From: Actinomycetota bacterium
Lineage (GTDB): Bacteria > Actinomycetota > Acidimicrobiia > Acidimicrobiales > Ilumatobacteraceae
Length of the DNA: 61,119 nucleotides
NCBI GenBank assembly: GCA_005790505.1
Contig: SXUP01000030.1
Coordinates: 1 to 61,119, forward strand
Direction of reading: 5' to 3'
The position numbers and the translations under genes were made by a program. Within the stretch, counting starts at the first letter, position 1. Each line of letters begins with the position of its first letter. The notes beneath the pieces were generated by a model. It had not been told where the DNA came from. It was given only the letters and a program-made list of their open reading frames with translations, and did not search any database. This document shows positions 35,161 through 35,995 of this stretch, in pieces.

Positions 35161-35234
35161 TCGGCGGCGCACTCAGGGTGCTTACTTGTTCGATTGCCTC
35201 GCTAGTTGAGTGGGTAATCAGCAAGACTGTGGTC

Positions 35235-35504
35235 ATGCCACTTTGGAAACCACATGCGCTTGCCCATCCTCACGAGGGACAAATTGACCTCAAACTTGGA
35301 GACTCCGTCATATCCACGGTTGAACTTGACGGCGTTGCGATTGGCACTGAGGGAAAAGTTGTGTTGGCGAACGGCTTTAATTGGCAGCGTTATCGCGTTT
35401 TATTCGTGACAGGTCACGAGCACGGCGACCTTGATCAACGTCATCTTGCCCCAATCGGAAAAACAGCACGCCGCATAACACGCGCGGCGAAGCGGGCTCT
35501 TTAA
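35235..35504 (+). CDS. small hypothetical protein (89 aa)
   Basis: From ATG 35235 an 89-residue basic protein with many His and short beta-strand-like segments (DLKLGDSVISTVELDGVAIG, GKVVLANGFNWQRYRVLFV) and an Arg/Lys-rich C terminus (TARRITRAAKRAL). It may form a small beta-barrel, but I know no family. It lies between the divergent tig gene and tRNA-Pro. AAGACT placed 6 nt before the ATG is a weak -10 candidate. Confidence 0.6.
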   Translation: MPLWKPHALAHPHEGQIDLKLGDSVISTVELDGVAIGTEGKVVLANGFNWQRYRVLFVTGHEHGDLDQRHLAPIGKTARRITRAAKRAL

Positions 35505-35508
35505 GCGG

Positions 35509-35514
35509 TAGATT
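35509..35514 (+). promoter_or_regulatory. -10 box TAGATT for tRNA-Pro and the PPOX gene
   Basis: TAGATT ends 10 nt before the tRNA 5' nucleotide, predicting a start about 4 nt upstream of the mature 5' end. No separate promoter can fit between the tRNA and the next gene. Confidence 0.45.
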
Positions 35515-35524
35515 CTTTTTTTAC

Positions 35525-35598
35525 CGGGGAGTGGCGCAGCTTGGTAGCGCGCCTGGTTTGGGACCAGGAGGCCGGGGGTTCGAGTCCCCCCTCCCCGA
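35525..35598 (+). tRNA. tRNA-Pro(UGG)
   Basis: A complete cloverleaf: acceptor CGGGGAG/CTCCCCG, D-arm GCGC/GCGC, anticodon stem CCTGG/CCAGG with loop TTTGGGA (anticodon TGG), T-arm GGGGG-TTCGAGT-CCCCC, discriminator A at 35598. CCA is not encoded (ACA follows is part of the next gene's start region). The start codon of the following gene is at 35600, only 1 nt after the mature tRNA. Confidence 0.97.
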
Positions 35599-35599
35599 C

Positions 35600-35995
35600 A
35601 TGGTTAATCAGATTGATGGGGCAAAATACATAGCGTTTTCTTCGTTGAAAACAGACGGAACGCCGGTTTCGACGGCCGTTTGGGTGGTCCCTTTTGATGA
35701 TGGATACGGCTTCACCACAGGGGCATCCGCCTACAAAGTTGGCCGAATAAAGCGCAACCCCGCCATCACTGTCGCTGTTTGCGACCGCAGCGGCAAAGTC
35801 ATGGATGGTGCGACCATTTATTGCGGCATGGCCCATGTTTTAGATAGCAACTCCTCTGAACAGGTTGCTCGCGCCATCCGCTCTAAATACTTTGTTTTGG
35901 GGCGCCTACTTCAGTTCTATAGCGTTGTGATCGGGGTGATTAAGCCATCCCGCCGAATCGGCGAAACCGCAATAAAATTCGTAATCGATAATTAA
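35600..35995 (+). CDS. PPOX-class F420-dependent enzyme (Rv2061-like)
   Basis: A 131-residue split beta-barrel flavin/deazaflavin-binding protein. The pattern AFSSLKTDGTPVSTAVWVVP, TGASAYKVGRIKRNPAITVAVCD and KYFVLGRLLQFY matches actinobacterial PPOX proteins that bind coenzyme F420 (Rv2061 type). It probably reduces an unknown substrate. ATG 35600 follows the tRNA-Pro 3' end by 1 nt; the apparent longer reading frame only translates the tRNA. There is no room for a Shine-Dalgarno sequence outside the tRNA, so the mRNA is probably translated leaderless after tRNA processing. Confidence 0.85.
   Translation: MVNQIDGAKYIAFSSLKTDGTPVSTAVWVVPFDDGYGFTTGASAYKVGRIKRNPAITVAVCDRSGKVMDGATIYCGMAHVLDSNSSEQVARAIRSKYFVLGRLLQFYSVVIGVIKPSRRIGETAIKFVIDN

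What the first reader, a model, noticed from the sequence alone, without database searches (positions are those of the whole stretch)
35505..35620. tRNA-Pro 3' end and a start codon are 1 nt apart: tRNA processing could make a leaderless mRNA
The mature tRNA-Pro(UGG) ends at 35598 (discriminator A) and the PPOX-type F420 gene starts at ATG 35600. The T-arm of the tRNA occupies the place where a ribosome-binding site would be, and no promoter fits between them. RNase Z cleavage after the discriminator would leave an mRNA beginning C-AUG, which fits the leaderless starts elsewhere in the window. Expression of the enzyme would then depend on tRNA maturation.
Basis: partly seen in the sequence, partly recalled or inferred. 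Interest (0 to 1): 0.6.

Follow-up and report, generated by a model that had tools for sequence, protein, structure and literature searches.

The report
tRNA excision makes leaderless bacterial mRNAs
In a group of freshwater bacteria several protein genes start one to six letters after a tRNA gene, a spacing kept across many species, so cutting out the tRNA probably creates the start of the messenger RNA, as in animal mitochondria.

Summary
It is not isolated. In the same genome, 7 of 33 scored tRNAs have a long ORF starting 1-6 nt after the discriminator. In relatives, tRNA-Leu(UAG)-racemase keeps 1-6 nt in 56 of 56 loci with that tRNA called, while spacer base and start codon vary; Ser(GGA)-TadA, Ala(UGC)-PurU and Leu(AAG)-pyruvate kinase do so in part of the relatives. 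Where PPOX spacing is open, 19 of 20 genes have a Shine-Dalgarno. All 74 scored CCA-less tRNA genes still encode C74; a cut after it, as mapped at some actinomycete tRNAs, would leave exactly 5'-AUG. Best reading: bacterial 'tRNA punctuation', leaderless mRNAs made by tRNA excision. Not shown: no transcript was mapped; nuclease and cut are inferred, and at several CCA-less Streptomyces tRNAs the mapped cut lies within a few nt downstream. PPOX tightness is not genus-wide: 20 of 26 same-genus loci have 23-59 nt. Ten literature searches of an open library found no bacterial precedent.

The parts
35509..35514 (+). TAGATT, putative -10 element of the tRNA-Pro/PPOX transcript
   Evidence: TANNNT beginning 16 nt before the tRNA; TAGATT or TAGGTT at the same place in G021, G022 and G028 (by eye); function not tested
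35525..35598 (+). tRNA-Pro(UGG), acceptor stem to discriminator A73
   Evidence: ARAGORN; Rfam RF00005 68.1 bits
35599..35599 (+). encoded C74, the only base between discriminator and start codon; cleavage proposed after it (or before it)
   Evidence: C74 in all CCA-less tRNA genes scored
35600..35995 (+). PPOX-class F420-dependent oxidoreductase-like gene (131 aa), start ATG 35600, no leader of its own, no Shine-Dalgarno in range
   Evidence: PF01243, TIGR03666; dN/dS 0.11 against G022 with dS near saturation, 0.10 between G021 and G022

Best explanation
tRNA-Pro(UGG) and the PPOX gene are transcribed together from the tRNA promoter. RNase P cuts the tRNA's 5' end; a tRNA 3' endonuclease (the RNase Z homologue is the candidate) cuts after C74 (or after A73), and the tRNA nucleotidyltransferase completes CCA. 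The same 3' cut creates the mRNA 5' end at the start codon (0 nt leader if after C74, 1 nt if after A73), with a 5' monophosphate, and ribosomes start on it in the leaderless mode. The same arrangement serves several other genes in this genome and its relatives: tRNA punctuation in a bacterium. Shown here: the anatomy, the absence of a promoter box or Shine-Dalgarno, purifying selection, the conserved spacing, the presence of an RNase Z homologue. Inferred: co-transcription, cut site, nuclease, 5' phosphate, leaderless initiation.
For: 1) In the own genome 7 of 33 scored tRNAs have the first ATG/GTG of an ORF of 120 aa or more 1-6 nt after the discriminator: PPOX, racemase-like, TadA-like, PurU, EamA transporter, acyltransferase, FMO-like; 6 of 35 in sister G022. 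2) tRNA-Leu(UAG)-racemase: 56 of 56 loci with the tRNA called have 1-6 nt, in five genera of the family and one genome of another family; within the 29 at 2 nt the second spacer base is T 19, A 7, G 2, C 1 and the start ATG 16, GTG 13. 3) TadA: 14 loci by script plus 2 by eye at 2 nt; in 13 of these 16 the A of CCA is the A of ATG. 4) PurU: 8 loci at 5 nt and 1 at 6; seven others have TACCCT 9 nt before GTG. 5) Pyruvate kinase: 6 loci at 3 nt. 6) The tight starts in these five families are all ATG or GTG, the codons that work leaderless in mycobacteria (PMC4633059, abstract and passages). 7) C74 in 74 of 74 CCA-less tRNA genes; cuts between the Cs of CCA in two actinomycetes (PMC3848588, PMC4681348, passages). 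8) RNase Z homologue, 286 aa with HLHSDH, NF000806 343 bits (cut-off 363), PDB RNase Z 1y44 E 1.6e-14. 9) dN/dS 0.04-0.13 in eight comparisons.
Against: No transcript 5' end was seen. Of 26 same-genus PPOX loci read, 20 have 23-59 nt leaders, so tightness is not required by the gene. In S. coelicolor several CCA-less tRNAs are cut within a few nt downstream of the 3' end, and some CCA tRNAs of P. acnes a few nt downstream; such a cut here would fall in or past the start codon. P. acnes leaderless mRNAs include 3% UUG starts, so the lack of TTG is a soft point. Relatives are not independent: on the racemase tree the states need only 2 (PPOX, three states), 1 (TadA) and 2 (PurU) changes. Of the 15 tight PPOX loci, 10 were found only by a pattern that allows only short spacers. 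G028 keeps the junction but its PPOX frame is broken; G022 keeps a PurU junction remnant without an intact gene there. C74 is also universal in G038, which lacks verified tight junctions. The RNase Z candidate is below the curated cut-offs and its best PDB match is named arylsulfatase. Leaders of 4-6 nt are not strictly leaderless.
Confidence: 0.72

Rival explanations
1. Genome compaction only: intergenic space was lost, the gene is read through from the tRNA promoter, and ribosomes start at an internal AUG beside an intact or partly unfolded tRNA.
For: The genomes with verified tight junctions surveyed are 1.9-2.0 Mb; in the 4.6 Mb relative G038 only 1 of 47 tRNAs qualifies, with a GC-rich open frame.
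Against: Compaction alone does not predict a narrow spacing with free sequence (56 of 56 Leu loci), ATG/GTG starts only, or the exchange of a tight junction for a Shine-Dalgarno leader or a leaderless-type promoter box. A folded tRNA would occupy the space a 30S subunit needs upstream of the start (general knowledge).
Confidence: 0.16
2. A promoter inside the tRNA starts a leaderless mRNA at ATG 35600.
For: Leaderless promoters are common in Actinobacteria, and trigger factor next door (GTG 35145, minus strand) has TACACT 9 nt before its start (spacing by eye).
Against: No TANNNT in the 40 nt before ATG 35600; no sigma-70-like site there; the sequence is fixed by the tRNA fold.
Confidence: 0.05
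3. The PPOX gene at this locus is barely expressed or dispensable, and the tight junction is a relic tolerated because of that.
For: G028 has the same junction with a broken frame; G022 lacks an intact PurU there but keeps the junction remnant.
Against: dN/dS 0.10-0.13 in three PPOX comparisons; TadA-like and pyruvate kinase genes, usually important, have the same arrangement.
Confidence: 0.07

Closest known systems
tRNA punctuation of animal mitochondria (Ojala, Montoya and Attardi 1981; seen only in a reference list, PMC5203842; content recalled)
   Same: tRNA excision defines mRNA 5' ends and leaves messages with no or almost no leader
   Different: Here a free-living bacterium; only some tRNAs, one gene each, apparently from local promoters; mostly CCA-less tRNA genes that keep C74
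Leaderless mRNAs of Actinobacteria made by transcription start at the start codon (PMC4633059 passages, PMC3890552 passages, PMC3848588 passages and section 14)
   Same: ATG/GTG at or next to the 5' end, no Shine-Dalgarno
   Different: 5' end would be made by tRNA processing and carry a monophosphate; no promoter box before the start
tRNA-mRNA co-transcripts in bacteria (8 tRNAs with protein genes in C. glutamicum, PMC3890552 passage)
   Same: tRNA and coding gene in one transcript
   Different: Spacing of 1-6 nt, so that the tRNA cut itself would set the mRNA start; spacing in C. glutamicum not looked at
Leaderless mRNAs made by a stress-induced toxin mRNase in E. coli (mentioned in PMC3848588 section 14)
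   Same: Leaderless mRNA made by cleavage
   Different: That mRNase is stress-induced and leaves 5'-hydroxyl ends; here ordinary tRNA maturation would do it

Membership tests
tRNA punctuation | tRNA 3' end at or within a few nt of the start codon, no room for a leader | tested here: met
tRNA punctuation | arrangement recurs at several genes and is kept in evolution | tested here: met
   7 of 33 tRNAs in G000; 56 of 56 Leu(UAG) loci with the tRNA called; TadA, PurU, pyruvate kinase and PPOX only in part of the relatives
tRNA punctuation | tRNA and mRNA come from one precursor cut by RNase P and RNase Z | not testable with these tools
   needs RNA; an RNase Z homologue is present
leaderless mRNA | 5' end at or within a few nt of ATG/GTG | not testable with these tools
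   predicted only; the tight starts counted are ATG/GTG
leaderless mRNA | no Shine-Dalgarno before the start | tested here: met
   the upstream 40 nt are tRNA; the AGGAGG there ends 28 nt before ATG, too far
promoter-made leaderless mRNA | -10 box about 6-10 nt before the start codon | tested here: not met
   no TANNNT in 40 nt
PPOX class F420-dependent oxidoreductase | match to the family model above cut-off | tested here: met
   TIGR03666 87.5 vs 84.9 bits; PF01243 34.9 vs 28.1 bits; F420 use not tested
RNase Z (candidate nuclease) | HxHxDH metallo-beta-lactamase protein matching RNase Z models above cut-off | tested here: inconclusive
   HLHSDH present; NF000806 343 bits, cut-off 363; TIGR02651 109 vs 293; PDB RNase Z 1y44 E 1.6e-14, best match an arylsulfatase entry E 7.5e-20

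The most novel reading that the evidence does not exclude
A lineage of freshwater Acidimicrobiia uses tRNA punctuation as a standing way to make mRNAs: for several tRNAs the maturation cut at C74 is also the mRNA start, including genes for TadA, PurU and, in one clade, pyruvate kinase. Where the A of the encoded CCA is the A of the AUG, keeping the whole encoded CCA on the tRNA and keeping the mRNA start are mutually exclusive, so cleavage plus CCA repair is forced if the gene is to be read; expression of these enzymes is tied to tRNA maturation flux.
Probability: 0.57. Interest if true: 0.85.

Novelty: new variant of a known kind. Interest (0 to 1): 0.74.

Why it matters
If true, a gene-expression layout taught as a mitochondrial peculiarity exists in free-living bacteria, as an alternative to promoters and Shine-Dalgarno leaders for making leaderless mRNAs. 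It would tie the supply of some proteins, one of them the tRNA-editing enzyme TadA, to the rate of tRNA maturation. It also makes a sharp test possible: mapped 5' ends at a few loci decide, and the spacing data say where those ends should be. It further suggests that in this order the tRNA 3' cut lies after C74, and that gene callers can start such genes inside the tRNA.

Tried and rejected
Promoter inside the tRNA: no TANNNT, no sigma-70-like site. Start codon elsewhere, and reading through the tRNA from GTG 35531: rejected because leadered homologues start at the aligned position. Mechanical 'first start' picks in SD-led PPOX loci (TTG at 3 nt in G011, GTG at 6 nt in G023 and G009, picks at 7-21 nt in G005, G003, G014 and G013) were not counted as tight, because the homologous ATG lies further down, behind a Shine-Dalgarno in all but G014. 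G027 PurU was likewise read from its GTG 36 nt down, not the TTG at 12. The tight ORFs of tRNA-Arg(CCG) and tRNA-Met in G001 and tRNA-Tyr in G038 were not verified by homology. TadA genes have a second in-frame ATG 18-33 nt further on; the first is preferred because in G001-type loci the promoter-like box lies 6 nt before the ATG at that protein position.

Rows dropped before counts: loci in which ARAGORN called no matching tRNA (PPOX 2 of 45, TadA 10 of 35, racemase 9 of 44, PurU 12 of 30; racemase 6 of 28 and pyruvate kinase 20 of 30). Of these, L226 (racemase), L194 and L210 (TadA) show the tight junction by eye, and L339 begins at the ATG. Two PurU loci with 634 and 784 nt were set aside. 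Five loci repeat genomes, judged by equal contig lengths, and were counted once; G048 is in both racemase sets and was counted once. PPOX locus L034 (G019) and the second copy L035 (G026) were fetched but their junctions were not analysed. One search translated the RNase Z stretch out of frame and gave nothing; the ORF listing replaced it. A second metallo-beta-lactamase protein (G000 C57) was listed but not pursued.

Literature: ten searches of the held open library listed no report of bacterial mRNAs whose start is set by tRNA 3' processing; only passages of eight papers were read, and most subscription papers and preprints are not held, so this is weak evidence of novelty. The tree is poorly resolved (11 of 32 inner branches starred), lacks G005, G011, G019, G025, G032 and G035, and cannot tell gain from loss. 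Not tried: structure prediction; metatranscriptomes (none on hand).

Full report
What is there. tRNA-Pro(UGG) occupies 35525-35598 with discriminator A35598; C35599 follows and the PPOX-type gene starts at ATG 35600. The gene (131 aa) matches PF01243 and TIGR03666 above cut-off. The 40 nt before the ATG are tRNA and hold no TANNNT; TAGATT begins 16 nt before the tRNA. The AGGAGG in the tRNA ends 28 nt before the ATG, too far for a Shine-Dalgarno. The start codon is well supported: in same-genus homologues that have a real leader, the protein begins at the aligned position (MPADLDSAKY against MVNQIDGAKY). The organism looks like an Ilumatobacteraceae-type freshwater actinobacterium: most titles of the named loci with this junction are Ilumatobacteraceae, Acidimicrobiaceae, Acidimicrobiia or acIV MAGs.

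The same junction in relatives. Of 61 genomes searched, 40 had a PPOX match. Of 30 loci read, ARAGORN found tRNA-Pro(UGG) in 28, upstream of the gene in all 28. G021 and G022 have C-GTG at the same place, G007 and G031 CTC-ATG; G028 has the C-GTG junction but a broken frame. A pattern search for short spacers in named genomes gave 15 loci, 10 of them new, with CC-ATG, CA-ATG or CAA-ATG; this search could not find long spacers, and one of the ten (L068) is cut off by the contig end. Of the 26 same-genus loci, 20 have encoded CCA and 23-59 nt before the homologous ATG, 19 of 20 with GGAG, GAGG or AGGA in the last 20 nt. Two further genera have 9 nt (G036) and 17 or 23 nt (G034). So tightness at this locus goes with loss of the leader and, in 13 of 15 unbroken tight loci, of the free-standing CCA; in two the CCA overlaps the ATG.

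A genome-wide pattern. Rfam found 34 tRNAs in the own genome, and 34 were read with their flanks. With the discriminator set by acceptor pairing, 33 could be scored: 7 have the first ATG/GTG of an ORF of at least 120 aa within 6 nt: Pro(UGG) 1, Leu(UAG) 2, Ser(GGA) 2, Gly(CCC) 3, Val(GAC) 4, Ala(UGC) 5, Lys(UUU) 6. Their products are PPOX, an alanine-racemase/D-threonine-aldolase-like protein (named from recall, no model run), a TadA-like deaminase (146 bits, cut-off 150), acyltransferase 3, an EamA transporter, formyltetrahydrofolate deformylase and an FMO-like oxidoreductase. Sister G022 has 6 of 35, G001 of the same genus 5 of 40 (two of them not verified), G038 of another family 1 of 47 (a GC-rich frame open to the stretch end). 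Fisher p is 0.007 for G000 against G038, a weak test because the genomes differ in size and compactness.

Spacing kept, sequence free. For tRNA-Leu(UAG)-racemase, all 56 loci with the tRNA called have 1-6 nt: 5 with 1, 29 with 2, 7 with 4, 4 with 5, 11 with 6. They cover the own genus, four other genera of the family (the genus of G034 has 4-6 nt in 22 of 22 with the tRNA called) and G048 of another family. The start taken is the first in-frame one; where others exist in the G034 genus they lie 43 nt or more down, inside the conserved N-terminal region. Among the 29 with 2 nt the second base is T 19, A 7, G 2, C 1, and the start codon ATG 16, GTG 13. Eight more distant members of the order (about 300-400 nt upstream read) and three others of G048's family have no tRNA called upstream. 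For tRNA-Ser(GGA)-TadA, 14 loci have exactly 2 nt by script and 2 more by eye; in 13 of these 16 the leader is CC and the A of CCA is the A of ATG. Eleven have 14-255 nt; in five of these TAGGTT lies 6 nt before ATG, a leaderless-promoter layout, and in two another gene seems to lie between. For tRNA-Ala(UGC)-PurU, 8 loci have 5 nt with three different sequences (CGTTT, CAACT, CCACT) and 1 has 6; seven have 30-36 nt, all with TACCCT 9 nt before GTG; two are far away. For tRNA-Leu(AAG)-pyruvate kinase, 6 of 30 loci have CCA-ATG or CAA-ATG, 1 has 65 nt, and 23 have no such neighbour or no tRNA called. The tight starts in these five families are all ATG or GTG. In mycobacteria an ATG or GTG at the 5' end is necessary and sufficient for leaderless translation and TTG is ineffective (PMC4633059, abstract and passages); in P. 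acnes 3% of leaderless starts are UUG (PMC3848588 section 14). The tight genes are under purifying selection: dN/dS 0.04-0.13 in eight comparisons, with dS near saturation for PPOX G000/G022.

How it probably works. One transcript from the tRNA promoter carries tRNA and gene; the tRNA's 3' cut is also the mRNA's 5' end. Where is the cut? All CCA-less tRNA genes scored still encode C74: 23 of 23 in G000, 21 of 21 in G022, 7 of 7 in G001, 23 of 23 in G038 (G000 and G022 are close relatives; one tRNA each in G000 and G001 could not be scored). In P. acnes and S. coelicolor, dRNA-seq shows cuts between the two Cs at CCA-encoding tRNAs: examples in P. acnes, most of the 12 in S. coelicolor (PMC3848588, PMC4681348, passages). 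A cut after C74 would leave exactly AUG here, N-AUG/N-GUG at most Leu(UAG) junctions of this genus and C-AUG at most tight TadA genes. Against this, other P. acnes CCA tRNAs are cut a few nt downstream and several CCA-less S. coelicolor tRNAs within a few nt downstream of the 3' end, followed by trimming; a cut there would damage the start codon, so the point has to be settled in this lineage. C74 is also present in G038, which lacks verified tight junctions, so it points to the cut, not to punctuation as such; it may also serve RNase P recognition (recalled). The candidate nuclease is an RNase Z homologue (286 aa, HLHSDH; NF000806 343 bits against a cut-off of 363; PDB RNase Z 1y44 at E 1.6e-14, though an arylsulfatase entry scores higher). 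P. acnes is reported to lack an obvious tRNase Z and yet to cut at its tRNA 3' ends, so another nuclease is possible. In B. subtilis RNase Z is stimulated by a U within 2 nt of the discriminator (PMC10100781 passage); only some of the junctions here have that.

What speaks against. No RNA data. The loci are related: on a racemase tree of 35 rows, with 11 of 32 inner branches well supported, the junction states change only 2 (PPOX, three states), 1 (TadA) and 2 (PurU) times. PPOX tightness is not genus-wide. Two junctions outlived their genes (PPOX in G028, PurU in G022), which shows that a junction can persist without an intact product.

Comparison and novelty. The layout works like the tRNA punctuation of animal mitochondria. 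Leaderless mRNAs are common in Actinobacteria (33% of mRNAs in C. glutamicum, PMC3890552, abstract passage) but in the passages read are ascribed to transcription start at the start codon; tRNA-mRNA co-transcripts are known (8 tRNAs in the same paper). Ten searches of the held library (listed under tried and rejected) showed no bacterial case in which tRNA excision sets the mRNA start; that library lacks most subscription papers. I rate it a new variant of a known kind.

Noticed in passing
G000, G022, G001, G038 tRNA genes (loci): Every scored tRNA gene without encoded CCA still encodes C74 (23/23, 21/21, 7/7, 23/23), suggesting that the 3' cut lies after C74 in this order.
   Followed up: yes
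window 35145-35143, minus strand: Trigger factor probably starts at this GTG ([10 protein letters not shown]...), with TACACT 9 nt upstream, a leaderless-promoter layout; the mechanical ORF start at 35172 then is too long.
   Followed up: partly
window 35531-35995: Mechanical 154-aa ORF that starts inside the tRNA (MAQLGSAPGLGPGG...); gene callers could misplace the start of this and similar genes.
   Followed up: yes
L061, L126, L147 (tRNA-Leu(CAA)): A 104-aa ORF starts at GTG 4-5 nt after the discriminator of tRNA-Leu(CAA) in G000, G022 and G001 (VINTLSPMGQRLL.../VIHTLTPMGQRLL...); too short for the 120-aa count, function not examined.
   Followed up: no
L092 (G022, tRNA-Ala(UGC)): PurU is absent or broken in G022 (only weak matches), yet the junction GTTTATG and about eight codons of its start remain after the tRNA.
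   Followed up: partly
L007/L078 (G028): PPOX gene broken (stops in the frame) behind a tRNA-Pro C-GTG junction like that of G021 and G022; real decay or assembly error not decided.
   Followed up: no
L074: Record titled Bifidobacterium breve MAG carries the freshwater Ilumatobacteraceae-type tRNA-Pro-PPOX junction, so the label looks wrong.
   Followed up: no
window 35178-35504: Small ORF (108 aa) that ends 20 nt before the tRNA; a similar end (LAREAKRA-like) is seen upstream of the tRNA in several relatives, by eye; no Pfam or NCBIfam match.
   Followed up: partly
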